DNA from: Frigoribacterium sp. PhB160
Lineage (GTDB): Bacteria; Actinomycetota; Actinomycetes; Actinomycetales; Microbacteriaceae
Direction: 5' to 3'
Length of the DNA: 64,000 nt
Assembly: GCF_003751785.1 (NCBI RefSeq)
Contig: NZ_RKIE01000003.1
Span: forward strand, 310,001-374,000
Each line of letters begins with the position of its first letter. Position 1 is the first letter of the stretch. This document shows positions 52,135 to 64,000 of the stretch, piece by piece. The position numbers were made by a program, and so were the translations under genes. The notes below the pieces were generated by a model that was given only the letters and a program-made list of their open reading frames with translations, made no database searches and was not told the DNA's origin.

Positions 52135-52224
52135 GGTACCGTGTCCGAGCGGCCGAAGGATCATGTCTCGAAAACATGTGTGGGGGAGACTCCACCGTGG
52201 GTTCAAATCCCACCGGTACCGCCA
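52135..52224 (+). tRNA. tRNA-Ser (CGA)
   Basis: A 90-nt class II tRNA including an encoded CCA end. GGTACCG pairs with CGGTACC, the anticodon loop reads CTCGAAA (CGA), the variable arm is long (TGTGGGGGAGACTCCAC region), and the T-arm is GGTTCAAATCC. It marks the sharp change from GC-rich core sequence to the accessory region, a usual integration target for mobile islands. Confidence 0.97.
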
Positions 52225-52273
52225 AAGGGTTGTTTGCGCTTCGTTCGAAATTCGTTTGCGGAACTCAGCCCGA

Positions 52274-52494: not shown

Positions 52495-54399
52495 CTACGT
52501 TCGCGGAGGTGGGTCGTCGGCGGGTCCGCTCGTCGGGAACGGGGAGAGTTCGGGCCGGACGTAGTCGGCGCGGTAGTTGCTCATGCCTTCGGCGTCACGA
52601 CGGCGGGTGCGCCGGGCAGGCGTCGGCGTCAGGCCTTTCGCGACGCGGCGGTCGCGGTCCTTCGGCGCTCGGTGCTTGGCCGCCAGGAAGGTGACGATCT
52701 TCCGGATGTTCGCGGCCGTCGCGAGCATGGCCAGAAGGAACTGCTGAGCGGCAAGACCTCGCAGGCGCCGCGCGCTGGAGTCGGCGATGCGCTCGGGGCC
52801 TGTCTTGATGAATGCGTTGAAGCTCTCGATGCTGTTGCGGTCGCGGCGGTAGGTCTTGGACCATTCCTTGCTGCCGTAGGGCAGCATCTGGTTCATCTTC
52901 TCGCCGTCCTCTGGGCGCACGGTGATTGAGGTCTGGCAGCAGACCTTGTCTTTCTGCTTTGGGACGTTGCCCTGCAGCACCTGCCGGCGTTCCTTGTCCG
53001 GGGATGCACGCTTGTCGAGCTGGCGGAGAGGGCACTCGACCGTCGCACTCGGGCCGAGGGCTGGGCAGCGCATCTTCACGTTGCCGTTGGCGTCGGGACC
53101 CTCCTTCTTGTGGAGTCGGTATGCGTCACGCTCGTCGATCTGCTGGGACCACTCGACGTTGTCGATCTCCTTGTTGTTGCGCCGCACCGTCGCGTCGAGG
53201 AGTCGCTTCGGGGTGCCGGGGCAGAACTGACCGCCCTCGACGAGCTTGGCTCCACCGACCTGGCCCCGGACACCGGTCTGATTCGCGCGGTTGTAATCGA
53301 AGACGAGGCCGACGCCGAGCTCTCTCATCGGACGGTGGAAGTCCTCCATGGTGAGACCCGCCGAGTATCCGAGGTCGGACGAGAGGCGCGCGATGTCATA
53401 GCCGCGTTCCTGGATGTTCTTCACGAGCTCGACGGTGTGGAAGCCGATGCCTTTGTTCGGCGTAGTCAGGCTTGCTCCACGGATCAGCTGTGGTGCTTCG
53501 GTGGGGTCACCTGATGGGTCCTCGTTGACGTCGATGATGAGGTTCGCCGTGTAAGCGAGCAGCCACCGGCTCCGTGCTTGCTTGACGCTGGCTTTGCCGT
53601 CCTCCTTGGTGTGCTTGCTGAAGACCCGTTCTTTCTCGCCCTTGTCGATGGGGTAGAGGTCAGCCTCGAGCTCCATTGCGTACTTCGGCTGTTCTTGGTC
53701 TGTGCCTGCGATGAACATGGGCTGCTCGACGCCGTTCTCCCGCGGCCAACGATTCTTCTGGCTCGGCGCACGCAGCACCGTCTGGTCGACGGAGAGCGCA
53801 AGACGCTGACGCCGCACGGCTCGAGGCAGGTTCTGGGCGGTGGCCTCCAGCAGCGTGTTCGTGAAGGTCATGCTGCGCTCGTGTGCCCGGCGTTCGATGT
53901 TCTTGTCCCGGAGCGCGTCCAGGCTGCTCCGCTCCTCGTGAGTGAGGAGCCGGCGCGGTGCCGGCCAGGCATCCCAGAGGTCGATGATGCGGTGCATGGC
54001 CCGCCATGCCAGGAAGTACCAGTCGTTGGGCTTGTCGTTGTCGTACAGGTGAGCGATGCCGAGCTCGCGACGGGCTTCATCGTCGAGACGGTGTTCAAAG
54101 ACGCGGCCCATCTCGCGCACGAAGATCATGGACTGCTCCGACAGGAGCATCATCACCACGGTCAGGATGGCCAGGTCATCGATCTTTGCCTTGGCGCCGC
54201 CCGGAGCTTTCTTCTGGCGGTCCTCCGCGCGCCAGGTCGCGAGGAGCTCGATGACGCCGGATGAACGGAGGAAGGTCATCCACTCTCGGGCGTCGGCGCC
54301 GCGGAATTTGGTGGTCTTGGTCGATCCGCTGATGATTCGGTCGGCTGTGTAGATGCCGTTGAAGAACTCCTCGTCGTGGAAGGAAGATTCGCCAGTCAC
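52495..54399 (-). CDS. DDE-transposase-like protein (IS1182-like layout)
   Basis: A 634-residue protein. Candidate DDE residues are Asp205 (ALSVDQTVL), Asp342 (LSSDLGYS) and Glu525 (RRDRNSIESFNAFIK); the C-terminus RRLRGLAAQQFLLAMLATAA, then NIRKIVTFL resembles the end of IS1182/IS4-type transposases, and a Cys-containing segment (MRCPALGPSATVECPLRQLD) precedes it. The GTG start overlaps the stop of the recombinase-like gene upstream (GTGA), which is unusual for an insertion-sequence transposase. No convincing terminal inverted repeats were found. It may be domesticated or part of a composite element. GC is lower than in the core genes. Confidence 0.7.
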   Translation of the reverse strand: MTGESSFHDEEFFNGIYTADRIISGSTKTTKFRGADAREWMTFLRSSGVIELLATWRAEDRQKKAPGGAKAKIDDLAILTVVMMLLSEQSMIFVREMGRVFEHRLDDEARRELGIAHLYDNDKPNDWYFLAWRAMHRIIDLWDAWPAPRRLLTHEERSSLDALRDKNIERRAHERSMTFTNTLLEATAQNLPRAVRRQRLALSVDQTVLRAPSQKNRWPRENGVEQPMFIAGTDQEQPKYAMELEADLYPIDKGEKERVFSKHTKEDGKASVKQARSRWLLAYTANLIIDVNEDPSGDPTEAPQLIRGASLTTPNKGIGFHTVELVKNIQERGYDIARLSSDLGYSAGLTMEDFHRPMRELGVGLVFDYNRANQTGVRGQVGGAKLVEGGQFCPGTPKRLLDATVRRNNKEIDNVEWSQQIDERDAYRLHKKEGPDANGNVKMRCPALGPSATVECPLRQLDKRASPDKERRQVLQGNVPKQKDKVCCQTSITVRPEDGEKMNQMLPYGSKEWSKTYRRDRNSIESFNAFIKTGPERIADSSARRLRGLAAQQFLLAMLATAANIRKIVTFLAAKHRAPKDRDRRVAKGLTPTPARRTRRRDAEGMSNYRADYVRPELSPFPTSGPADDPPPRT

Positions 54400-55265
54400 T
54401 GAGTCGCTCCCGTTGAGCGGAGAAGCGCGTGAAGCTCAGCCTCAGGCATGACCTTGGCCTGTGGCGCGTATCGAAGGAGCGACGAGACGTTCTTGAATCC
54501 GGCCGCGTAGACGATGCTCGCTAGGGGCAGAACGTTGATCTGGTCCACGATCCAGGTGATGCGAAGGCGGCGAATAGCAGGGCCCTCGTATCGGGCGCCG
54601 TAGTGCATCAGCGCGATCTCCCGGGAGGACTCCTTGCGGTGAGGAATGACCGCATAGTCATCGTCGTCAAGGCCCTCGAAAGCGAGGTCCGCGTAAGAAT
54701 CCCACCCGATACGGATGGGGATGCTTCGCGGCGCCTTCCCGGTCACGCGGACGACCCAGCCAGCCGGAGTGCGCGTCAAGTCTCGGCCACGGACCGCGGC
54801 GATCTCGGTCGCTCCGAGGCCTGCGCCACCGGCAAGCGCGAGAAGCCCGTATGAATCACGGCGGGCTCGGTCGGTGGACCTCGACGCGGCCCAGCTCTCG
54901 AAGGCGGGAAGCTCTGCAGGTGAGAAGGGTCGTATCTCCCGGCTCTGCTTTCTAAGGCGGTGAGGAGACGGTTCGTAGCCGAGCGCTTCAGCGAGGTTCA
55001 GGAGTCTGGCTTCGGCCAGCTGCTGCGTCTTGGCGCTGGGGTAGGTGCGTGCGAAGCGGTAGATCATGGACGGGTAGAAGAGGTCATCGCGGCGCAGGTC
55101 CGCACCGGCCTCGTGGAACGCCCACACGACGTACCGGCTCGCGAAGGTCAGGAGGATCCTCGTGTAGAGCATGTCGTGAGGTTTAGCGTCGAGGACGCAC
55201 GCGAGCGTGAAGTCCCGAACGGGCAGCCACTTGGTCGGGGCGATGCGGCGCGGGTGGTATCGCAA
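54396..55265 (-). CDS. Degenerate tyrosine-recombinase-like protein (copy 1)
   Basis: About 289 residues from a TTG at 55265, or 328 from a GTG at 55382. The TTG has a perfect AGGAGG 5 nt upstream and begins just where similarity to the second copy starts; the GTG at 55382 has no ribosome site. The fold is inferred from LLALAGGAGLGATEIAAVRG (box I, Arg replaced by Gly), RRLRITWIVDQINVL (box II, no His before the Arg) and AGFKNVSSLLRYAP with a possible Tyr. Catalytic Arg I and His look lost. Its stop overlaps the DDE-like gene start. Function unknown. Confidence 0.6.
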   Translation of the reverse strand: MRYHPRRIAPTKWLPVRDFTLACVLDAKPHDMLYTRILLTFASRYVVWAFHEAGADLRRDDLFYPSMIYRFARTYPSAKTQQLAEARLLNLAEALGYEPSPHRLRKQSREIRPFSPAELPAFESWAASRSTDRARRDSYGLLALAGGAGLGATEIAAVRGRDLTRTPAGWVVRVTGKAPRSIPIRIGWDSYADLAFEGLDDDDYAVIPHRKESSREIALMHYGARYEGPAIRRLRITWIVDQINVLPLASIVYAAGFKNVSSLLRYAPQAKVMPEAELHALLRSTGATQ

Positions 55266-55293
55266 GATCGCCTCCTGAAGCTCCAGCGTGGCG

Positions 55294-55311
55294 TGGTCAT
55301 TAGATTGACCA
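55294..55311. promoter_or_regulatory. 18-bp inverted repeat before recombinase-like copy 1
   Basis: TGGTCATTAGATTGACCA has 6-bp perfect arms. It matches the repeat at 56838-56855 at 16 of 18 positions and lies 28 nt upstream of the TTG at 55265. Candidate operator or binding site shared by the two cassettes. Confidence 0.6.
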
Positions 55312-55444
55312 AAGTGTGCTACTGCACGCTCGAGTTGGGAAGGGGGGAAAGTCGCAGGCTGTGTCTCGTCAGGGGTGGTCACGAGAGATGGACATGAGAC
55401 AAGACGGGGTCATCAAGCAGTCATATGCGCTCTTAGCGCACATC

Positions 55445-55450
55445 TAAACT
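55445..55450 (+). promoter_or_regulatory. -10 box TAAACT for the first XRE-type gene
   Basis: TAAACT is 6 nt before the GTG at 55457, leaderless spacing, supporting this small gene. Confidence 0.45.
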
Positions 55451-55456
55451 ATCGGG

Positions 55457-55765
55457 GTGCCCGATCCACGTTTTGAGCCGCGGTCGTACCTGCGTGAGCC
55501 AAGCCGTTTCGGTCGCGACCCTGAAGCTCAATGGGTCTCGACGGTGTCGTTCTCGTCAGGCCAGCTCGACCAGTGGGGTGCTTCGCGCATCCAGCACCGC
55601 CTCGCCTGCAGCATCAGAGCCGCAATAGCGACGCGGTTTCGCTCGGTCGGGAACTACGCGGCTGCGTCTGGGCAAAGCCCTGAACGGTTGGGGCGTCTCC
55701 TCAGGGGTGAGGTCGTGATGCGTCTTGAAGATGTGGCCAGCGCCCGTCGCCACCTAGGCGTCTGA
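55457..55765 (+). CDS. Small XRE-like helix-turn-helix protein (cassette 1)
   Basis: A 102-residue protein. The C-terminal half has an XRE-type helix-turn-helix pattern (SVGNYAAASGQSPERLGRLL, then EVVMRLEDVASARRHLGV). The N-terminal half is not recognised. The leaderless promoter supports the GTG start. It is divergent from recombinase-like copy 1, the same arrangement as the XRE gene at 56916 beside copy 2. Likely a DNA-binding regulator of its cassette. Confidence 0.6.
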   Translation: MPDPRFEPRSYLREPSRFGRDPEAQWVSTVSFSSGQLDQWGASRIQHRLACSIRAAIATRFRSVGNYAAASGQSPERLGRLLRGEVVMRLEDVASARRHLGV

Positions 55766-55843
55766 GCTGGCCTGAGCGACGTGGGGTGTGCTGGCTGTGT
55801 CTCGGCCAGAGCGCTGCCTCGGCTCATGCTGGAGCGGCAGTCG

Positions 55844-56818
55844 TCACCGGAGCAATTCCCGCCGCGGGTCGTCGTCCGACCTCGCGACATAGGGCAGGAG
55901 TCGGTCGAGCGCTTCGGCCGACTGCAAGCCGGCGACCTCGAGCAGGAGGTCTAGGGGTGTCCCGCGTCGCAGGTGTTCGACGATCCAAGTCGCGCGCATG
56001 CGTCGTGATTGGAGTTCGACCGACGGACGCGGAATTCGACTGACGAAGTCGGTGACGAGATTGATGTTCCCGCCTCGCTGCCCACTGCGGAATGCCCATC
56101 GGGATGCGGCCCTGGACGCCGTTCGGCGCGTCAGGAGGGGCGCCCACTGGCTGAGTACCGGGACGTCTCTCGCGTCGTCACCCGACACGTGCACCACGAC
56201 GCCCCGATCATCTGTCGTGACGTCCGCAAGTTCGAGATCGATGATCTCCCGCCCCGTCAGTCCCGCCCCGAGGCCCAGAGCGAGGAGCGCACCGGCGCTG
56301 GTCGTCCGTTCCTCGTCGTGCTGGCTACTGGCCCACGACAACAACGAAGCCACCTCGCTCGGGGTATACGGACGTGACGCCTCAGCCTTGCCTAGGGCTC
56401 GGAATGTGCCGGCAGCCTCGTCGCCCAAGAGTGCCTCCGACGTGCGTCTCAGGCGAGCGCGCAGGGTGTTTTTTCCGGCCCTGCTGTACTGCCCGAGGTG
56501 ATGTTGCACGAAGCGGTTGATGAACCTCGGGTCGAAGACGTTGTCATCTTCGAGGGGGACGCTTGCTGTCGCCCAGGCGAACAAGGCGAGACGGGAGACG
56601 GCCGGGTAGAGCTCCTTCTCGGAGTACGGCGTTCTGGGGGCGGTGTCTCGAACGACGCGCTGCACGTAGGGGCGGATGGCGTCCCACTGATCAGCGGGCA
56701 TCTTCGGCGTGTAGTCGTAGTGAGCCGCGGCCGGCGCCTCGGGCTGTCTCTCTGCCATGCGCCTCACCACCTCGAGTTGCCGCTCGCGGCGTTCGTCAGC
56801 CCCATCGCTCACCGGCAC
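55844..56818 (-). CDS. Degenerate tyrosine-recombinase-like protein (copy 2)
   Basis: A 324-residue paralog of the gene at 54396-55265. The N-terminal half is helical (core-binding-like); box I reads LLALGLGAGLTGREIIDLEL with Thr in place of the usual Arg, box II reads SRRMRATWIVEHLRRG, and LDRLLPYVARS has a Tyr aligned with that of copy 1. The GTG start has a GGAG site and is 19 nt downstream of the shared inverted repeat. It is not followed by a DDE-like gene. Recombinase activity is doubtful; a DNA-binding role is the alternative. Confidence 0.62.
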   Translation of the reverse strand: MPVSDGADERRERQLEVVRRMAERQPEAPAAAHYDYTPKMPADQWDAIRPYVQRVVRDTAPRTPYSEKELYPAVSRLALFAWATASVPLEDDNVFDPRFINRFVQHHLGQYSRAGKNTLRARLRRTSEALLGDEAAGTFRALGKAEASRPYTPSEVASLLSWASSQHDEERTTSAGALLALGLGAGLTGREIIDLELADVTTDDRGVVVHVSGDDARDVPVLSQWAPLLTRRTASRAASRWAFRSGQRGGNINLVTDFVSRIPRPSVELQSRRMRATWIVEHLRRGTPLDLLLEVAGLQSAEALDRLLPYVARSDDDPRRELLR

Positions 56819-56837
56819 TCATCTCCAAGCTCGAATG

Positions 56838-56855
56838 TGGTCATTACAATGACCA
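56838..56855. promoter_or_regulatory. 18-bp inverted repeat before recombinase-like copy 2
   Basis: TGGTCATTACAATGACCA has perfect 8-bp arms around AC. It sits between copy 2 and the divergent XRE gene and matches the site at 55294-55311 at 16 of 18 positions. Confidence 0.65.
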
Positions 56856-56903
56856 ATTTGGGACACGTTCGACGGGGCGGCCGTGCGCTCGAGCCGGCAC
56901 GCC

Positions 56904-56909
56904 TAGCCT
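56904..56909 (+). promoter_or_regulatory. -10 box TAGCCT for the second XRE-type gene
   Basis: TAGCCT is 6 nt before the ATG at 56916, leaderless spacing. Confidence 0.45.
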
Positions 56910-56915
56910 TGCGGC

Positions 56916-57191
56916 ATGGGTAGAACAGCGCGCGCGAAACCAGCCGCGCTAGCTCCGTCCCCGTGGCCGGACGTCCACTCGGACGACCCGATCGGGGAAG
57001 TGGCTCGCAGATTCGCCCAGAACCTTCGTCAGGCCGTCGGCAGTCGCAGCATCCGGTCGGTGGCCGAAGCTTCAGGCGTCACCCATACGACTCTTTTGAG
57101 CGTCCTGGCGGGCCAGGTGTGGCCGGACCTCGAAACGATCGCGAAGCTCGAGCGGGGGCTCGGCGTCGGTCTATGGCCACGGGGCCATTGA
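56916..57191 (+). CDS. Small XRE-family helix-turn-helix protein (cassette 2)
   Basis: A 91-residue protein whose C-terminal 60 residues form a clear XRE-type domain: RSIRSVAEASGVTHTTLLSV then LAGQVWPDLETIAKLERGL. The first 25 residues are Pro/Ala-rich. It is divergent from recombinase-like copy 2, with the inverted repeat between them, so repression of copy 2 (and possibly copy 1) is a natural guess. It ends 13 nt before the end of the convergent unknown gene. Confidence 0.72.
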   Translation: MGRTARAKPAALAPSPWPDVHSDDPIGEVARRFAQNLRQAVGSRSIRSVAEASGVTHTTLLSVLAGQVWPDLETIAKLERGLGVGLWPRGH

Positions 57192-57204
57192 CGGCCGTCT
57201 TCGG

Positions 57205-57759
57205 TCAACTTCCCGGGTTCTTCTTCCCCTTCGCAGAACTCGTCTCCGACGGGGGTGAAGCCGTCTCAGGAGCGTCCACCATGGTCACCTCGCTTGCTTT
57301 TGGTATCCGCGAGAAGCGCTGTCGGTCGAGAGCGGGCAGATCGGCGAGCCACGTGGCTCCACGTGCGGCGAGTCGTGCTCGAAGCGATGTGCCTGTGATG
57401 CCTCCTTCTAGGTCCGTGATCGGTGTGGCCTCGAGCTGGAATTCGCCGAGCTTCAAGCACAAGCTGATGTAGGCCAGGTAGGTCTTCCTCACATGCGCCG
57501 TCAGGGACACCGGGGCGTCATTGGTGCTTTCCTCATGAAAGGCCTCGTCGGGCGAAATCCAGGTGACCGAGGCCTCGTGCTCGCCGGCCTTCGCGCTCAG
57601 GCCGTGGATGGCGCCTTCTGGGTGAGCGCGCCAGATGACCCTCGGGTTGACGGTGTCGGTCAGCGAGTCGCTCAGGTCGAGGACACGGCCTTGCGCCGTG
57701 ACGATGCCAAACGCCTTGCTCTTGGGAGGAATCGCCTCATTTTCTGCGCTCATGGTCAT
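57205..57759 (-). CDS. Unknown protein, head-to-head with a distant relative (member A)
   Basis: About 184 residues (ATG at 57759; 57753 and a GTG at 57771 are alternatives). No family recognised. Visible parts are FGIVTAQGRVLDLSDSL, then VIWRAHPEGAIHGLSAKAG, and a helical VRKTYLAYISLCLKLGEFQL, ending in a polar disordered tail (SPPSETSSAKGKKNPGS). The WRAxPxxxIxG motif and the following layout recur in the divergent gene at 57804-58235. Low-GC codon use compared with the core. Function unknown. Confidence 0.6.
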   Translation of the reverse strand: MTMSAENEAIPPKSKAFGIVTAQGRVLDLSDSLTDTVNPRVIWRAHPEGAIHGLSAKAGEHEASVTWISPDEAFHEESTNDAPVSLTAHVRKTYLAYISLCLKLGEFQLEATPITDLEGGITGTSLRARLAARGATWLADLPALDRQRFSRIPKASEVTMVDAPETASPPSETSSAKGKKNPGS

Positions 57760-57803
57760 AACTATTACCACTTCGACCGGCTTCGTGCCAGGATCGCGAC
57801 GAC

Positions 57804-58235
57804 ATGAAACGAGGTGGTGGCATGCACGCGATAGGCCTGAGGGACGGCCAGGTCGAGATCACGGGCCTGAGCTCGAGCCCCGCGAGCGTCGCCGTGTGGC
57901 GAGCGGACCCCGGCCGCGAGATCTCCGGGTGGCACTTGGACACGGTCGACCTGAGCATGAAAGACGGCAGGCCCTTCGGGTACGTCACCTTCGTAGAACC
58001 AGGGGCCGGCCGTGAAGCTCAGGTAGCCGTTCGTTGGGATCATGTGCACGACCAGCTCCAGTGCTTCGCAACGGACCGGAACATCGGCAAAGAGCGAGGC
58101 GAACTCGAGCGGGACGTTCGTCATCGAGTTGGCGCGCTGATGGCTGCCTACGCCCAGCTGGGCCTGTCGATCGCAACTAGTTACGTTGCCGCCGAGGCAT
58201 TGCGGACCGCGGCCAATCTGGCGCCCCATCGCTAG
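57804..58235 (+). CDS. Unknown protein, head-to-head with a distant relative (member B)
   Basis: A 143-residue protein. GLRDGQVEITGLSSSPASVA then VWRADPGREISGWHLD mirrors the VxxLS...VxWRAxPxxxIxG stretch of the divergent gene, and RHRVGALMAAYAQLGLSIAT mirrors its helical region. The two starts are about 45 nt apart. No known family; the pair could form a heteromer. The start ATG at 57804 lacks a clear ribosome site, so the true start may differ. Confidence 0.58.
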   Translation: MKRGGGMHAIGLRDGQVEITGLSSSPASVAVWRADPGREISGWHLDTVDLSMKDGRPFGYVTFVEPGAGREAQVAVRWDHVHDQLQCFATDRNIGKERGELERDVRHRVGALMAAYAQLGLSIATSYVAAEALRTAANLAPHR

Positions 58236-58491: not shown

Positions 58492-60444
58492 TCAGCGGCG
58501 GATCTTGTCCGTCGAACTTGACGGAAGGTGTTCGCCTATGTGGCCGATGTAGATGCATCCGTCGTTAGAGACCTGGTCGTAATAGTGGATTCGAAGCTTT
58601 TGCTGCGCTGACCAGCTGTGCGGCTTGAAGTGAGACCACATATGCACGTGCCCAGTAAGGTCGACCTCCTTCGGCACGGGAAGGAGGCGATGATCGCCGA
58701 ATCGCGCGCGGGTGTCGCTTGTTTCGTCTCGGGCGTGCTTGTTCGGTGGGACGTGGAACCGGTCAGCAGGACCGGATTCGCAGAACGCGTGCACGCTGCT
58801 GTCCCACACCCCATCGAGGCGCGACGCCCGGTAGGCAGCCATAGTGCCCAACGCGTCCCAGGCCGCGCGGAGCCCGGCTTGGTCGAGGTCGAGCGCTTTC
58901 ACCGCTTTTACCGTCCGTAGGTTCCCGGTGATGACGAGTTGGTGGGTGGCGAGTCTGGGATCGGTGAGGAGGGCGTCCCAGTCGGCGGGGCTTGAGCCGA
59001 GCGGGTTCGCCGGTCCGTTGTCGTCCACCCAGCTGTACGCGTTCGCTGGGTCATGCTCGATCACCTTGCTGCGTAGGAATGCGGCCTCCCGGTTCTTTGC
59101 CGCGAACTGCACGTCAAGGCGATCCCGTTCTCGGGTGACCGCAGCAGCATCGGATCGTTCGCCCTCCAACGTGTCCTCCAGCAACTCGACCTTGCCGCGG
59201 AGTTCGTCGTTGTCCGAGAGCAAGCGCTGAACCGATTCTGCGTCCGGCACGGTTCGTGTCGCGGCATCAAGTAGTTCGAGCAACGTCGACTCGAGGAGAT
59301 CCGGCAGGCCGAGGAAGTCTTGCAGCTCCATCAGCTGGCGGAGAGCCTCTGCTCGCGCGGAATTTGCGGTCGCTACCTCGGTGCGGAGCGCGACGATGAC
59401 ATCCGCCGAGAGGTCTTCCGCCGCTACTGGCGCTACCGCGGGAACGGATAGGCCAATCGTATCGACCATGGTGGGCTTCAACGCCGGTCGCGCAGCCTGT
59501 CGGGCTGCGACGCGTTCGCTTAGCGGCACGGCATTTGGTTCGACCGCGGAACGGAGCCGCTGCGCGGCGGTGCGGTCGAAGGCCCTGTTCCACTCTCGAA
59601 CCGTCGGGGGCAGTGGCTTCTGGTACTGACGAACGAACCGCTCGACGGTCCGTTCGATGTCAGCATCCAGTCCGGCGAGGGTCCGCGTCGTCAGCCAGCG
59701 CGCCGCGGCTTCAGTGGCGGGGTCGTCTAGATCCACGTCCGGTGGGTAAGTCCGTAGCGTCCCAGCCCCCACGGCACGCCGACCGTGCAGAGCGCGAAAC
59801 TGCTCAGCGGAGATTGGGTCGAGCGAGACCACATGTGCGATGCCCGCGCATCGTCGAGTCCACCGGCGCACACCCTGCATCCACTGTTCGAATTCGATCC
59901 CGTCGATGGGTGCGGCGACAAGGACCGGGAGACGACGAGTCCGGTCATCAATCAGTTCCTGAAGCTCCTTGAGCCCGGCGTTCGATACGTGCCGCACACC
60001 GGTGCGGACGGGACCAACATCTGAGAGATCAACGACGTCGAGGATCATGTCCGCGACCTTCGGTTTCGCTGCCCGTCGCCGGTCAGAGGAAGCCGTCCGG
60101 ACGCTGACCCATCCTCCACTCGGGCCGTCCACAGCGACGATGGTCACAACAAACGTTGTTCCCCGATTTGTGTTCCACGCGCGGACCCGGACCCCGTCCT
60201 CGCGTCCTGCGCGACGGTGCAAGACTTCGACTCGGCGTGTTGGGGGTGAGCCGACTGCTTCGCCTTCGACACCCGGGTCAATTTCGACCCCGAGCTTGTC
60301 TCTACTCCACGCGGCCACCTCGTCGAGCACGCGGCGCAACCAGTTGCTACTGCCCTGGGTGGTCCAGTACGCCTGATAGTCGTGATCCGCAGGTGCGGCA
60401 GTCTCCGTTTGGCTAACGTCCGTGCGCTCATCCGTGGTCGTCAC
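58492..60444 (-). CDS. Large multi-domain protein of unknown function with central coiled coil
   Basis: A 650-residue protein from a GTG at 60444 with AAGGGTGG upstream. No family recognised. N-terminal third: a mixed alpha/beta region with VRTASSDRRRAAKPKVADMI and LPVLVAAPIDGIEFEQWMQG, then SLDPISAEQFRALHGRRAVG. Residues ~345-480 are helical with heptads (SADVIVALRTEVATANSARA, RLLSDNDELRGKVELLEDTL). The C-terminal ~110 residues carry HVHMWSHFKPHSWSAQQKLR and IYIGHIGEHLPSSSTD, which read as a compact conserved domain. No signal peptide. Next to an IetAS-like pair, so defence is possible but unproven. Confidence 0.65.
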   Translation of the reverse strand: MTTTDERTDVSQTETAAPADHDYQAYWTTQGSSNWLRRVLDEVAAWSRDKLGVEIDPGVEGEAVGSPPTRRVEVLHRRAGREDGVRVRAWNTNRGTTFVVTIVAVDGPSGGWVSVRTASSDRRRAAKPKVADMILDVVDLSDVGPVRTGVRHVSNAGLKELQELIDDRTRRLPVLVAAPIDGIEFEQWMQGVRRWTRRCAGIAHVVSLDPISAEQFRALHGRRAVGAGTLRTYPPDVDLDDPATEAAARWLTTRTLAGLDADIERTVERFVRQYQKPLPPTVREWNRAFDRTAAQRLRSAVEPNAVPLSERVAARQAARPALKPTMVDTIGLSVPAVAPVAAEDLSADVIVALRTEVATANSARAEALRQLMELQDFLGLPDLLESTLLELLDAATRTVPDAESVQRLLSDNDELRGKVELLEDTLEGERSDAAAVTRERDRLDVQFAAKNREAAFLRSKVIEHDPANAYSWVDDNGPANPLGSSPADWDALLTDPRLATHQLVITGNLRTVKAVKALDLDQAGLRAAWDALGTMAAYRASRLDGVWDSSVHAFCESGPADRFHVPPNKHARDETSDTRARFGDHRLLPVPKEVDLTGHVHMWSHFKPHSWSAQQKLRIHYYDQVSNDGCIYIGHIGEHLPSSSTDKIRR

Positions 60445-61278
60445 TGATCCACCCTTCGCTTAGTGAGAGAAGCTTACCTAGGGAAGGTGTCGTCATGCGC
60501 TGGCTCCCTTTCGGTTCTCGGCATCGATCCCAGCACGGTCCGCTGATGGTCACGGCCATACCGGCCCTATGCGGGCACGTCGGCCATGTCCGGCATCGAC
60601 GTCCTACCTCGCCACCGGTTGTGCACTACTCGCTAACCGTTTCCGCCCCCGGGGTACAAAGCTGGTTCAGGCCGTTGACTCGGCATCGTCGGACCAGGTG
60701 GACGGATGCTTCACCTTCCGGATCAGCGGCAGGGGGATGCATCACGGGAACTTTTCGTCTCTCCCAGCGGCTCATGACGTCAAACGCGTCGCTGACATCG
60801 CGGTCGCCGCAAGGTGCTGCCTCCAAGTCCACAAGTGGACGCCCGCTGTGCCCACTTCTGGGGCGACAGGCGGGGCGGGGCATCCACCTCGACCTCCACA
60901 TTTACGCTCGGGCGGCTCTAGCCGCCCCGCTCACCCGGTGGCGGCCAGGTTCTGCCGGCGCCTCCACTTCTCGGGGTCGTTCGCCTGCTCGCAGAGGGGG
61001 TTGGAGGAGGGCCGAATAGCGACCGCCGTGGTCGATCCAAGGCTGCTCGTCAGGCCTGGTGAGTTCGCAACTAACGCGCTATGTCGTTCCGGGCGAGCCC
61101 TTGGTTCCACATCGCATTGCGCACCTGCTTGATCGTGTCCGAGTGGACGCGAGAGGCTCATTCTCGACGTTTGGGCAAGCCCAAATGAGACCCAAGTGGG
61201 TGTGTGGCTGTCTCTCGTTGTGCGCAACGTGTCCCTCAGCTCGTCAGAAATGTCTGATCGGGGTCTTACTATGTCCGT
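60445..61278. other. 834-nt region without a convincing gene
   Basis: Divergent gap between the 650-residue gene and the AAA+ gene. It contains the inverted repeats GTCCACAAGTGGAC (60827-60840) and GGGCGGCTCTAGCCGCCC (60910-60927), and several overlapping open frames (for example 60495-61019 plus, 60626-60901 and 60931-61353 minus) with no start signals or recognisable motifs. Possibly decayed genes or an untranslated RNA. Confidence 0.45.
61267..61272 (+). promoter_or_regulatory. -10 box TACTAT for the AAA+/protease operon
   Basis: TACTAT is 6 nt before the ATG at 61279, leaderless spacing, and fixes the start of the AAA+ gene. Confidence 0.5.
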
Positions 61279-62466
61279 ATGGAGCACTTCTCGATCGTCA
61301 AGGCCATCGGCCGCGCCGCGCTGGCGGCGGATAACCGGGAGGTCGTTGCTCATCAGCTGGTTCGCCTCGAGGCCGCGCTTCGCAGTTCTGGTGACGGCGA
61401 CGCTGATGCCCTTCAGAAGATGATTTCTGCCGCTTCCCGCCCTCGCCGAGCTGCGCCAAGCCGCGTTGCTCGAAGCGCAGTCTCCGCGTTGGAACGTATG
61501 GCGGTGGGTGTGCCGGTGCCGGTTGATCCAGAGAGCGCGGCCCCGCTTGCGATGGTTGTGTTCCCTGAGCAGAACACCGCGAGTCGACCTATCTTCAACG
61601 ACGTCGTGACGGAGATGGTGCAGTCACTGACCAAGGAATGGGATCATCAGGAGCAATTACTGCAGGCTGGCCTGCATCCGTCATTGACCGCGTTGGCCTA
61701 CGGCCCGCCCGGGACAGGAAAGACATCGCTCGCGCTTTGGCTCGCCAAGGAGCTAAATTTGCCGGCAGTTGTTGCCCGTCTTGACGGTCTTATCAGCTCT
61801 CTGCTCGGGACAACAGCGCGCAACCTCGGCTCGTTGTTTGAGTTCGCAAACAGGTACGAGTGCGTCCTCATTCTCGACGAGTTCGACGCCATAGCGAAGC
61901 TTCGAGACGACCCCAACGAAGTTGGGGAGATCAAACGAGTTGTGAACGCGCTCCTACAGAACATGGATGGACGCGCCGCGATCGGCATCACTCTGGGATT
62001 GACCAACCACGAAGCGCTCCTTGATCCAGCAGTTTGGCGTCGGTTCGAGGTGCAGGTGCCGATCCCCGTACCTGCCGTTCCCGAACGAATTGCCATTGTC
62101 GCCGCAGCTTTGGGCGACACCCCCGGCATCGAGGCGGAAGCGAAGCTCATCGTCTGGATGACCGATGGCTTTTCAGGGGCGGAGGTGACCACGGTGTGCA
62201 AGAAATGGCGGAAGCGCCAAATTGTGGACGGTCTAGCCCGCACCGACGCAGTGCAATTGATCATGCAGGTCACGGCTTCCACTGCAGCGCGTTTTGGTGC
62301 AGCGGATCGTCCTGAGTGGCCGAACCGTGAAGCTCTCATCGCCGATCTAGTCCTGAGTGACACTCTTCACTTCTCCCAGGGTGAACTGGCACATTTGTTC
62401 GGCATCAGCACCAAGACCGTAAGCCGCCTAGTGAATAAAATTCAGAGCGAGGATGGCAATGCCTAA
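61279..62466 (+). CDS. ietA: AAA+ ATPase paired with a subtilisin-like protease (IetA-like)
   Basis: A 395-residue AAA+ ATPase. Residues 1-120 are a helical N-domain; Walker A is GPPGTGKT at 142-149, Walker B LILDEFDAI (Asp200, Glu201), a sensor-1-like region is GITLGLTNHE, and an arginine-rich WRRFEVQVPIPVP follows. The C-terminus FSQGELAHLFGISTKTVSRL is a helix-turn-helix-like segment. It overlaps the protease gene by 8 nt, so the two are translationally coupled. The ATPase plus S8 protease layout is that of IetAS anti-phage defence; the name is by architecture only. Confidence 0.75.
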   Translation: MEHFSIVKAIGRAALAADNREVVAHQLVRLEAALRSSGDGDADALQKMISAASRPRRAAPSRVARSAVSALERMAVGVPVPVDPESAAPLAMVVFPEQNTASRPIFNDVVTEMVQSLTKEWDHQEQLLQAGLHPSLTALAYGPPGTGKTSLALWLAKELNLPAVVARLDGLISSLLGTTARNLGSLFEFANRYECVLILDEFDAIAKLRDDPNEVGEIKRVVNALLQNMDGRAAIGITLGLTNHEALLDPAVWRRFEVQVPIPVPAVPERIAIVAAALGDTPGIEAEAKLIVWMTDGFSGAEVTTVCKKWRKRQIVDGLARTDAVQLIMQVTASTAARFGAADRPEWPNREALIADLVLSDTLHFSQGELAHLFGISTKTVSRLVNKIQSEDGNA

Positions 62467-64000
62467 CCAGCCAGTCCAGATCGTCACAAACCCGCAGCGG
62501 CTGACGCAACGGCGCGACAAACCGTCCCCAAATTCCGCCGGTACCGATTTTTTCGCAGGCAATGACGCTGGATTTGCTCGCCATCAGGTGCGGTTGACGA
62601 CGCAACTCGCCAGCATCATTAGCGCACTAGAAGTGCCTACGTACATGAATGATTACAATGGCTTGGGTTTTGTAATCGTCAAGATGAGTTCCCAAGCCAT
62701 CGCTAAAACACACCGGCCGCAGATACGCCTGTTCAAGAAGAATGCAGTTCCTCATGTGGCCACGCGGGGCATTGGAGAACCAATCTTCGCCTGTACCCCG
62801 GAGACGCTTCGTGGAGTCCTTGAGCGGCTCCGTCAAGCTGAACTCAGCGTCGGTACCAAAACGCTAAAAACTGGAGAGATCGTCGCGAACCCGACGAGAG
62901 CCCGGTGCGAAGCGTCTGCAATCGCGAGCATTGAGCTGTGGTCTGTCGCAGACAAGCGTGCCTTCGATGCTGAGGATGGGGTTGCGTGGCTGAGTCGGTC
63001 CGGGTCGGGTGGCAGATACCACGTGGAGCTCTTCCCATTTGGTGGGGTGTCAGCACCGGCATCTCTGACACGTGCTGGCCAGAGCGCAGCGCGAGCGCTC
63101 GAGAACGACCTCACCAACGTCTCCGTTGACATAAATGCGCAAGCGGCTCGCGGGGTGGGCGGCCCGCTTGCTCTGTCTGTGGCTGTGCTTGAACCAGGCG
63201 TCCCCGGGCGTACTGAACTCGGAATCACACTCGAGGAAGTCGGAACCGCGCTTCGAAGCCGCGGGAACCCAGCCCCCAACGTCGACGTCGACGAACATGC
63301 GCGTGTTCTCAACGCTCTCGAACGCAACCCGCTCGTACGCTCCATCACGCTCCCGCCGCTCCCCTCAGCCACGCAGGGAGAGGCTGCAGCCACCGGCGCC
63401 CTGGCCTTGCCCGTCCTCCCGGGCCCCGACGAACAGACCCTGCCGATCATCGGTGTACTGGATGGGGGCGTTGGGTCCGTGCTCGACCCTTGGGTTGTCG
63501 ACCGCTGGACGGTGATAAGTCCATCGGACACGGACGCGGAGCATGGCACGTTCATCAGTGGCCTCCTGATCGCGGCAGGACCGCTTAACCCGTCGCTTTT
63601 GGATTCAGCACGTCCGGCCTGCCGGATACTGGACCTTAAGGTGTTACCAGCGGACCCTGGAGGCACTGGTGTCAACTTTGGCCGCTACTACCCCGGTGGA
63701 GCCGCGGAGTTTCTCGACGAAATTGAAGACGCTGTCCGAGATGCCAGGAAACGGTATGACGTCCGAATATTTAACTTAAGCGTAAATTTTGACGGGCCCG
63801 GCGACGACGCGCGTTACGGCTTCGCGGCGCAGCGTTTGGACGAGATAGCGCGACAGCACGACGTCATATTTGTGATATCCGGCGGCAACCTTGTGCCAAG
63901 TGATCAACGTGCCGAGTGGGGTACGAATCCTGACCGAAACCTTGCTGCGCTGGTTCGGGAGACAAGGACGACGGTCTCGGAACCCGCTGAGAGTTTGTTT
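62459..64000 (+). CDS. ietS: Subtilisin-like serine protease (S8 family), 3' end outside window (IetS-like)
   Basis: The frame is open from ATG 62459 to the window end (514 residues visible). Residues 1-325 are an N-terminal region with no known motif. The S8 domain begins about residue 325: Asp335 in IIGVLDGGVGS, His362 in DAEHGTFISGLL, the strand FNLSVNF, and Asn477 in VIFVISGGN as oxyanion residue. The catalytic Ser should lie 50-80 residues further, beyond the window. No signal peptide, so it is cytoplasmic, which suits an intracellular defence protease regulated by the AAA+ partner. Confidence 0.8.
   Translation, partial: MPNQPVQIVTNPQRLTQRRDKPSPNSAGTDFFAGNDAGFARHQVRLTTQLASIISALEVPTYMNDYNGLGFVIVKMSSQAIAKTHRPQIRLFKKNAVPHVATRGIGEPIFACTPETLRGVLERLRQAELSVGTKTLKTGEIVANPTRARCEASAIASIELWSVADKRAFDAEDGVAWLSRSGSGGRYHVELFPFGGVSAPASLTRAGQSAARALENDLTNVSVDINAQAARGVGGPLALSVAVLEPGVPGRTELGITLEEVGTALRSRGNPAPNVDVDEHARVLNALERNPLVRSITLPPLPSATQGEAAATGALALPVLPGPDEQTLPIIGVLDGGVGSVLDPWVVDRWTVISPSDTDAEHGTFISGLLIAAGPLNPSLLDSARPACRILDLKVLPADPGGTGVNFGRYYPGGAAEFLDEIEDAVRDARKRYDVRIFNLSVNFDGPGDDARYGFAAQRLDEIARQHDVIFVISGGNLVPSDQRAEWGTNPDRNLAALVRETRTTVSEPAESLF

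What the first reader, a model, noticed from the sequence alone, without database searches (positions are those of the whole stretch)
61279..64000. AAA+ ATPase coupled to a cytoplasmic subtilisin: IetAS-like anti-phage candidate
An AAA+ ATPase with intact Walker A/B overlaps by 8 nt a subtilisin-fold protease that has Asp335, His362 and Asn477 in correct order and no export signal. A two-gene AAA+ plus S8 operon is the architecture of the experimentally described IetAS defence system. It sits in a lower-GC island next to unknown genes. The C-terminal helix-turn-helix-like tail of the ATPase is an added feature.
Basis: partly seen in the sequence, partly recalled or inferred. Interest (0 to 1): 0.78.

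Follow-up and report, generated by a model that had tools for sequence, protein, structure and literature searches.

The report
Phage-defence protease pair with DNA-repeat promoter
Two linked genes, an ATP-driven protein-handling motor and a protein-cutting enzyme, form a complete member of a known bacterial phage-defence and gene-addiction pair (IetAS), and its promoter carries evenly spaced short DNA repeats that the motor's DNA-binding tail probably reads to control the pair.

Summary
IetA (61279-62466) and IetS (starts 62459 or 62453, ends 987 nt past the window) match PADLOC IetA PDLC02195 and IetS PDLC02199 over nearly their full length. The missing catalytic Ser is there (GTSFAAP). Both fall far below NCBIfam's equivalog cut-offs, so this is a divergent branch of IetAS.

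The pair is cargo of a tRNA-Ser island bounded by a 20-bp repeat. A second Frigoribacterium carries the same cargo at 98.7% identity amid core DNA 78-90% identical.

The HTH tail is not an added feature: all 80 relatives kept by one scan have it. New here: four TGTCY boxes, exactly 21 bp apart, lead up to the ietA start (61209, 61230, 61251, 61272). Promoters of 64 non-redundant long-branch members show 20/21-bp periodicity (lag 21: 244 against 26.7 +/- 6.4 shuffled). The repeated word follows the HTH type; 73 of 80 promoters have three or more boxes, shuffled 1 of 4000.

Best reading: IetAS works as a toxin-antitoxin-like defence pair, in which IetA both restrains or feeds the protease and binds its own promoter as a phased array. 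DNA binding and anti-phage activity were not tested.

The parts
61279..62466 (+). ietA: AAA+ ATPase, 395 aa. N-terminal three-helix bundle (4-53), AAA+ core and lid (108-335), C-terminal tri-helical HTH (350-394)
   Evidence: PADLOC IetA PDLC02195 1-392/395, E 3.7e-134; AlphaFold model mean pLDDT 85, residues 351-390 at 88-92; best PDB sequences p97/VCP; p97, FtsH, PAN folds
62459..64000 (+). ietS: cytoplasmic S8 subtilase, 842-844 aa; alternative ATG at 62453; ends at extended coordinate 64987 (L002:4987), outside the window
   Evidence: PADLOC IetS PDLC02199 3-840 of 844, E 7.1e-247; Pfam Peptidase_S8; D/H/N/S and the Met at 62459 invariant in 29 of 29
61209..61213 (+). repeat box 1, TGTCT
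61230..61234 (+). repeat box 2, TGTCC, 21 bp after box 1
61251..61255 (+). repeat box 3, TGTCT, 21 bp after box 2
61272..61276 (+). repeat box 4, TGTCC, 21 bp after box 3; 7 nt before the ietA ATG
   Evidence: boxes at -28 and -7 occur in all 7 actinobacterial loci listed (window, L035-L040)
61267..61272 (+). possible -10 element TACTAT, overlapping box 4 by one base (would imply a leaderless or near-leaderless mRNA); inferred by eye
   Evidence: sequence; the sigma-70 consensus scan found nothing here
52135..52224 (+). tRNA-Ser(CGA), integration target of the island
   Evidence: ARAGORN
52219..52238 (+). left 20-bp direct repeat (att); right copy at extended 68182-68201, outside the window
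52495..58235 (.). integration module of the island: DDE-like transposase (634 aa), two tyrosine-recombinase-like genes, two small HTH genes, two small unknown genes
   Evidence: same order beside tRNA-Ser in 6 other genomes of the genus; weak Pfam Phage_integrase and IS1182 hits

Best explanation
The two genes are a complete IetAS operon (long, HTH-bearing IetA branch) carried by a tRNA-Ser mobile island in a Frigoribacterium. SHOWN by sequence: intact ATPase and protease catalytic residues, conserved pairing, an HTH tail in all 80 relatives kept, and a 21-bp-phased direct-repeat array ending at the ietA start whose repeated word follows the HTH type. INFERRED: IetA forms an AAA+ ring of the p97/FtsH/PAN type that threads proteins and, in the resting cell, restrains or sequesters the otherwise toxic cytoplasmic subtilase IetS. 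Its HTH tail binds the phased boxes, all on one face of the helix (21 bp is two turns), covering the promoter and setting the dose of the pair. Phage infection, or loss of the element, upsets the IetA:IetS balance; IetS then cleaves host or phage proteins, and infection is aborted or cells without the element are lost.
For: Full-length PADLOC IetA/IetS matches. Catalytic residues D/H/N/S in 29 of 29 IetS. IetS-like DNA by tblastn in 80 of 83 loci; a downstream ORF over 350 aa in 74 of 80, with the Ser motif in 66 of 80. AAA+ fold near p97/FtsH/PAN, with an aromatic pore-loop residue (SS[FY]LG) in 77 of 80 (motif role recalled). Confident C-terminal HTH. Array: lag-21 autocorrelation z 34 over 64 non-redundant promoters; own-type word, three or more boxes, in 73 of 80 against 1 of 4000 mononucleotide shuffles and 0 of 160 tests with another type's word. 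Motif-free 4-mer chains of three or more at 20-22 bp in 45 of 64, shuffled mean 5.5%, against 1 of 13 short IetA without the HTH (L009-L021). Held-out loci: lags 20 and 21 sum to 16 and 14 in 7 loci (near copy L189 left out), other lags mean 1.1, maximum 4. Acidobacterial L050 with the proteobacterial HTH type has the proteobacterial word, so the word follows the protein rather than the host phylum. In the own genome the triple pattern occurs only here and in one tandem repeat on C1. Passages of PMC5006074 report that the related SGI1 pair acts with the protease as toxin and the ATPase as antitoxin.
Against: No binding, toxicity or phage assay was possible. The array is mainly a trait of the long IetA branch: of 8 more distant HTH-bearing IetA (L145-L152) only 2 had a three-copy 4-mer chain (L146, L148), 1 by the stricter 5-mer test, and L008, also HTH-bearing, had none; so an HTH tail does not always go with an array. 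In the held-out set L191 and L192, with changed recognition helices, lack the known words. 19 of 64 long-branch promoters have no exact 4-mer chain of three. Passages of PMC9927553 report that the sgiAT promoter is strong and that SGI1 presence seemed to raise its activity in some strains, which does not fit simple autorepression there. The window copy and two relatives have Leu instead of the aromatic pore-loop residue. The clade words were chosen by eye on the same data that were then counted; the autocorrelation, the 4-mer chains and the held-out set avoid that.
Confidence: 0.6

Rival explanations
1. IetAS here is mainly an addiction (toxin-antitoxin) module that keeps the island in the chromosome; phage defence is secondary or absent.
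For: PMC5006074 (passages): SGI1 sgiAT is a functional TA pair similar to pTiC58 IetA/IetS and stabilises SGI1. Here the pair sits on a tRNA-Ser island with att repeats and a recombinase module.
Against: Neighbours of 21 relatives include many defence-family matches compared with 41 chromosomal control proteins; PADLOC and NCBIfam file the family as anti-phage. The two roles are not exclusive.
Confidence: 0.25
2. The phased boxes are read by something other than IetA (a host regulator, nucleoid protein or sigma factor), and the HTH tail serves protein contact or phage sensing.
For: No binding data; in the window the last box overlaps a -10-like element, so part of the conservation could be promoter sequence. 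Most distant HTH-bearing IetA tested have no such array.
Against: The word changes with the HTH type and is shared by distant hosts with the same HTH type; one period of 20-21 bp is kept with different words. A host factor would not be expected to give this. Short IetA without the HTH show 1 of 13.
Confidence: 0.2
3. The array is a centromere-like or iteron site used for stability or incompatibility of the element rather than a transcriptional operator.
For: Iteron-like geometry, up to 7 boxes from about -148 to -22 in proteobacterial-type members; the title of Yamamoto 2009 (seen only in reference lists) ascribes stability and incompatibility of pTiC58 to this kind of pair.
Against: The array also lies upstream of ietA on long contigs that look chromosomal (contig lengths); the boxes run close to the start codon, over the likely promoter region.
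Confidence: 0.1
4. Not a defence or TA pair: a housekeeping AAA-protease couple.
For: The AAA+ domain resembles p97, PAN and FtsH.
Against: Sporadic: this IetS type in 3 of 299 sampled genomes of the family and 2 of 16 of the genus; island-borne and recently transferred.
Confidence: 0.03

Closest known systems
IetAS (IteAS) anti-phage system; PADLOC IetA/IetS, NCBIfam NF042959/NF042956
   Same: Two genes in the same order, AAA+ then S8 protease; full-length PADLOC profile matches; NCBIfam models also match (E 3.3e-82, 1.1e-78)
   Different: Scores are well below the NCBIfam equivalog cut-offs (276.6 of 510 bits; 265.4 of 900 bits): a divergent branch, with a phased promoter array that I did not find described in the searches listed
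Toxin-antitoxin pairs ietAS of pTiC58 and sgiAT of SGI1
   Same: AAA-ATPase antitoxin and subtilisin-like toxin in one operon on a mobile element (PMC5006074, passages)
   Different: Chromosomal tRNA-Ser island of an actinobacterium; toxicity untested. The pTiC58 and SGI1 sequences were not fetched, so no direct comparison was made
Iteron or phased-operator autoregulation (recalled from general knowledge of plasmid Rep proteins and TA antitoxins)
   Same: Short direct repeats at two-helical-turn spacing upstream of the gene for an HTH protein
   Different: Here the HTH is fused to a AAA+ motor paired with a protease

Membership tests
IetAS | IetA profile match over the whole protein | tested here: met
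   PDLC02195 1-392/395, E 3.7e-134
IetAS | IetS profile match over the whole protein | tested here: met
   PDLC02199 1-824/826, E 7.1e-247
IetAS | Intact Walker A/B and S8 Asp/His/Asn/Ser | tested here: met
IetAS | Adjacent genes, ATPase first, often overlapping | tested here: met
   8-nt (or 14-nt) overlap; in relatives a downstream ORF over 350 aa in 74 of 80, and 4 of the 6 without one have under 1 kb of contig left
NCBIfam equivalogs IteA/IteS | Score above the curated cut-off | tested here: not met
   276.6 against 510 bits and 265.4 against 900 bits: relative, not equivalog
IetAS | Protects against phage | not testable with these tools
   needs plating assays
Toxin-antitoxin system | Protease toxic alone and neutralised by the ATPase | not testable with these tools
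   reported for SGI1 sgiAT (passages), not for this pair
Self-regulated operon (HTH reads the promoter) | HTH domain plus repeated sites over the promoter that co-vary with HTH type | tested here: inconclusive
   sequence pattern met in the long branch; HTH type and clade are partly confounded, most distant HTH-bearing IetA lack an array, and binding is untested

The most novel reading that the evidence does not exclude
IetA is a DNA-anchored AAA+ ring. Its HTH tails dock on 3-7 boxes spaced two helical turns apart, so the array is an assembly platform that counts or holds IetA subunits and keeps the IetS protease inactive. Events that strip or titrate IetA from the array (phage takeover of transcription, replication, invading copies of the array) would release the protease. 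That would join plasmid incompatibility, addiction and phage defence in one DNA-sensing mechanism.
Probability: 0.18. Interest if true: 0.82.

Novelty: new variant of a known kind. Interest (0 to 1): 0.52.

Why it matters
A paper read here in passages says that the mechanism of IetAS is unknown (PMC11878078). The phased promoter array gives the HTH tail a specific predicted target and makes regulation by the ATPase directly testable with one gel-shift. It could explain why the same kind of pair has been reported as a toxin-antitoxin, an incompatibility factor and a phage-defence system.

Tried and rejected
Inverted-repeat operator: of 31 loci listed, only 2 (L057, L089) had an upstream palindrome beaten by at most 5% of shuffles; looking at those regions revealed the direct repeats instead. 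Sigma-70 consensus scan at 60900-61400: nothing. Defence-only element: 10 proteins downstream of the module in 4 of the 6 sister regions were metal P-type ATPases, transporters, redox and other enzymes, with one protein unassigned; the only PADLOC hit at E 1e-3 was a weak one to a desaturase model. The right ends of those sister elements were not determined, so some of these genes may be core DNA. Universality of the array in all IetA: rejected. My first control on short IetA (4 loci) used a 5-mer count too insensitive to see the window's own array (1 at lag 21; its boxes alternate TGTCT/TGTCC), and one search has the same weakness; one search repeats both with a 4-mer chain test that does find the window array (4 boxes; 3 or more in 1 of 100 shuffles): 1 of 13 short IetA without HTH (L009-L021, some of them near copies; L022 not parsed) and 2 of 8 distant HTH-bearing loci were positive. 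In the far-upstream control lag 21 was also raised (55 in 60 regions; the promoter shuffles gave about 27), partly from a few loci. Held-out set: L189 shares 80% of its 8-mers with L074 of the first set, so it was left out of the recount; L186 was dropped because only 74 nt lay upstream. Exact 4-mer chains of three occur in 4 of the 8 held-out loci, L189 among them. The clade labels are operational, by HTH regex: the 'alph' set holds alpha-, beta- and gammaproteobacteria and one acidobacterium; the 'bact' set is mostly Bacteroidota with one alphaproteobacterial MAG (L070), which gave 0 boxes by the final regex and 3 by a looser one. L035 was dropped from the promoter counts as a near copy of the window. 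IetS shortened or missing: L047 and L095 have no long downstream ORF despite about 9 kb of sequence; L051, L054, L066, L083 and L085 have short ORFs. Papers: listings; passages only of PMC5006074, PMC11878078, PMC10194956, PMC4231840 and PMC9927553; I saw no mention of the repeats in them. The 2020 phage-defence paper that I recall as the origin of ietAS and the 2009 pTiC58 paper are not held, so a description there cannot be excluded.

Full report
WHAT IS THERE. The window lies at G000:C3:310001-374000 of a 3.34-Mb genome. A locus with a 100% identical IetA comes from a record titled Frigoribacterium sp. VKM Ac-2836 (L035); its tRNA-Ser coordinates agree with genome G306 of the window's genus, so the window is inferred to be a Frigoribacterium. 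ietA is 61279-62466. ietS continues past the window to extended coordinate 64987 (844 aa from the ATG at 62453). PADLOC: IetA PDLC02195 E 3.7e-134 and IetS PDLC02199 E 7.1e-247, both over nearly the full profile. NCBIfam equivalogs IteA and IteS match at E 3.3e-82 and 1.1e-78 but below their cut-offs. It is therefore an IetAS member of a divergent branch.

THE PROTEINS. The IetA model (31-sequence alignment, mean pLDDT 85) shows a three-helix N-terminal bundle, an AAA+ core with lid, and a tri-helical HTH at 350-394. By sequence profile the best 60 of 220 PDB hits are p97/VCP and other classical AAA proteins; by fold p97, FtsH, PAN and Vps4 are among the best. Walker B and the WRRF arginines are present in 80 of 80 relatives, and the pore-loop word is SSFLG or SSYLG in 77 of 80; the window copy and two relatives have SSLLG. 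The IetS model was made from the L035 copy (99% identical to the window's in the alignment), since the complete protein is not inside the window; mean pLDDT 82. Its best fold matches are subtilases such as 3afg. The N-terminal third had no named domain in Pfam at E 0.01. No N-terminal hydrophobic stretch is visible by eye, so a cytoplasmic location is inferred.

DISTRIBUTION. IetS-like DNA is found by tblastn in 80 of 83 loci. A downstream ORF over 350 aa follows in 74 of 80, with the Ser motif in 66 of 80; of the 8 without the motif 5 are short ORFs, and of the other 3 (L071, L106, L107) L071 and L106 keep the aligned Ser. In the sampled family, PDLC02199 at E 1e-30 is found in 3 of 299 genomes; in the genus ietS is in 2 of 16.

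THE ISLAND. A 20-bp exact repeat lies at the tRNA-Ser 3' end (52219) and at extended 68182. L035 carries window positions 57926-68187 at 98.7% identity beside the same tRNA-Ser, while its core blocks match the window at 78-90%; its similarity ends within the right repeat, at CCGCCA. This shows recent transfer of the cargo. L035 lacks the recombinase module and part of the adjacent small gene. The seven-gene module (transposase-like, two recombinase-like, two HTH, two unknown) lies in the same order beside tRNA-Ser in six further genomes of the genus; the genes that follow there differ and include metal and transport genes (10 proteins of 4 regions scanned), though the right ends of those elements were not determined. 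To the right of the repeat the window genome keeps a degenerate second copy of part of the module.

THE PROMOTER ARRAY. In the window TGTCT/TGTCC/TGTCT/TGTCC stand exactly 21 bp apart, the last one 7 nt before the ATG. The three-box pattern, one mismatch allowed, has 2 matches in the window (both in this array) with none in 100 shuffles; exact, it occurs once elsewhere in the genome, in a tandem repeat on C1. Without assuming a motif, 64 non-redundant promoters (260 nt) out of 80 (79 relatives plus the window) show 5-mer autocorrelation at lag 21 of 244 against 26.7 (sd 6.4), at lag 20 of 152 against 26.2, and harmonics at 40-42 and 62-63; the control 1 kb upstream gives 55 and 19 (n = 60). 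Lag 20 or 21 is non-zero in 62 of 64 (control 36 of 60). An exact 4-mer recurs three or more times at 20-22 bp in 45 of 64 (shuffled mean 5.5%), in 2 of 8 distant HTH-bearing IetA and in 1 of 13 short IetA without the HTH. With one word per HTH type, three or more boxes occur in 5 of 6 actinobacterial, 47 of 48 proteobacterial-type and 21 of 26 Bacteroidota-type promoters; mononucleotide shuffles 1 of 4000; the other types' words in these regions 0 of 160. Proteobacterial-type arrays reach 6-7 boxes between about -150 and -22. The words were picked on the same data. Held-out test: 8 further long-branch loci (7 plasmid, 1 viral contig) gave lags 20, 21 and 42 of 16, 15 and 13 against a mean of 1.5 at other lags; five of eight have three or more boxes by the proteobacterial-type regex, one has two, and two with changed recognition helices have none. 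One of the eight, L189, is a near copy of a first-set promoter; without it lags 20 and 21 are 16 and 14, other lags mean 1.1 and maximum 4.

MECHANISM. Shown: architecture, conservation, array. Inferred: the HTH tails of IetA bind the array; occupancy of boxes that run up to the gene start regulates transcription; IetA restrains or feeds IetS; phage or element loss releases toxicity. The TA behaviour is taken from passages on SGI1 sgiAT (PMC5006074). A contrary hint is that SGI1 presence seemed to raise, not lower, the sgiAT promoter in some strains (PMC9927553, passages); that pair was not compared here.

DEFENCE CONTEXT. 120 neighbours of 21 non-redundant relatives matched 198 PADLOC models at E 1e-10 (25 listed), among them type I specificity subunits, CapP and E1-E2, PtuA/PtuB, DpdF and PDC-S05; many of the models are redundant, and each listed one matched 1 or 2 of the 120 proteins. 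41 chromosomal proteins of the window genome matched 5 models, the best being mad3 at 6e-51 in two proteins. The control is from one genome only. In the window genome the island also carries a SIR2-like and a CHAT gene just right of ietS, and the SIR2 gene accompanies ietAS in Curtobacterium too (L036, 65% identity).

VERDICT. The operon is a new member, in a divergent branch, of a known system. The phased array, probably read by the HTH tail, is the new part; it was not found in the searches named in Tried and rejected, but the founding papers were not readable here.

Noticed in passing
L002:5242-7817 (extended 65242-67817, just right of the window): A SIR2-like gene (466 aa, Pfam SIR2_2, weak ThsA and Dsr1 similarity) and a CHAT-protease-like gene (364 aa, N-terminus matches PADLOC PDC-S66) lie side by side on the minus strand after ietS; SIR2 also follows ietAS in Curtobacterium (L036), and CHAT recurs in the tRNA-Ser regions of two other genomes of the genus. 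A possible second defence unit.
   Followed up: partly
window 52495-58235: Conserved seven-gene integration module beside tRNA-Ser (DDE-like transposase, two tyrosine-recombinase-like proteins whose catalytic boxes look degenerate by eye, paired small HTH genes) in the window and six other genomes of the genus, followed by different genes: perhaps an undescribed class of integrative element (literature not searched).
   Followed up: partly
window 58492-60444: A 650-aa unknown protein with only partial, weak PADLOC similarity (HEC-07 mid-region, NsnC C-terminus), part of the transferred cargo.
   Followed up: no
window 57804-58235 and L002:9091-9522: Paralogous small proteins (63% identical) at two tandem module copies; the right copy also keeps fragments of the HTH and 188-aa genes: a decayed second element.
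   Followed up: partly
L191, L192 (upstream of ietA): Two plasmid IetA with changed recognition helices lack the GCAHC boxes; L191 shows GAATCG twice at 21 bp, possibly a switched word.
   Followed up: no
L148 and L146 upstream of ietA: A Hymenobacter IetA (AGAAAC...ATTTT copies) and a Dongshaea IetA (TTCA copies) from the more distant branch also have three copies 20-22 bp apart, so phased arrays may exist beyond the long branch.
   Followed up: no
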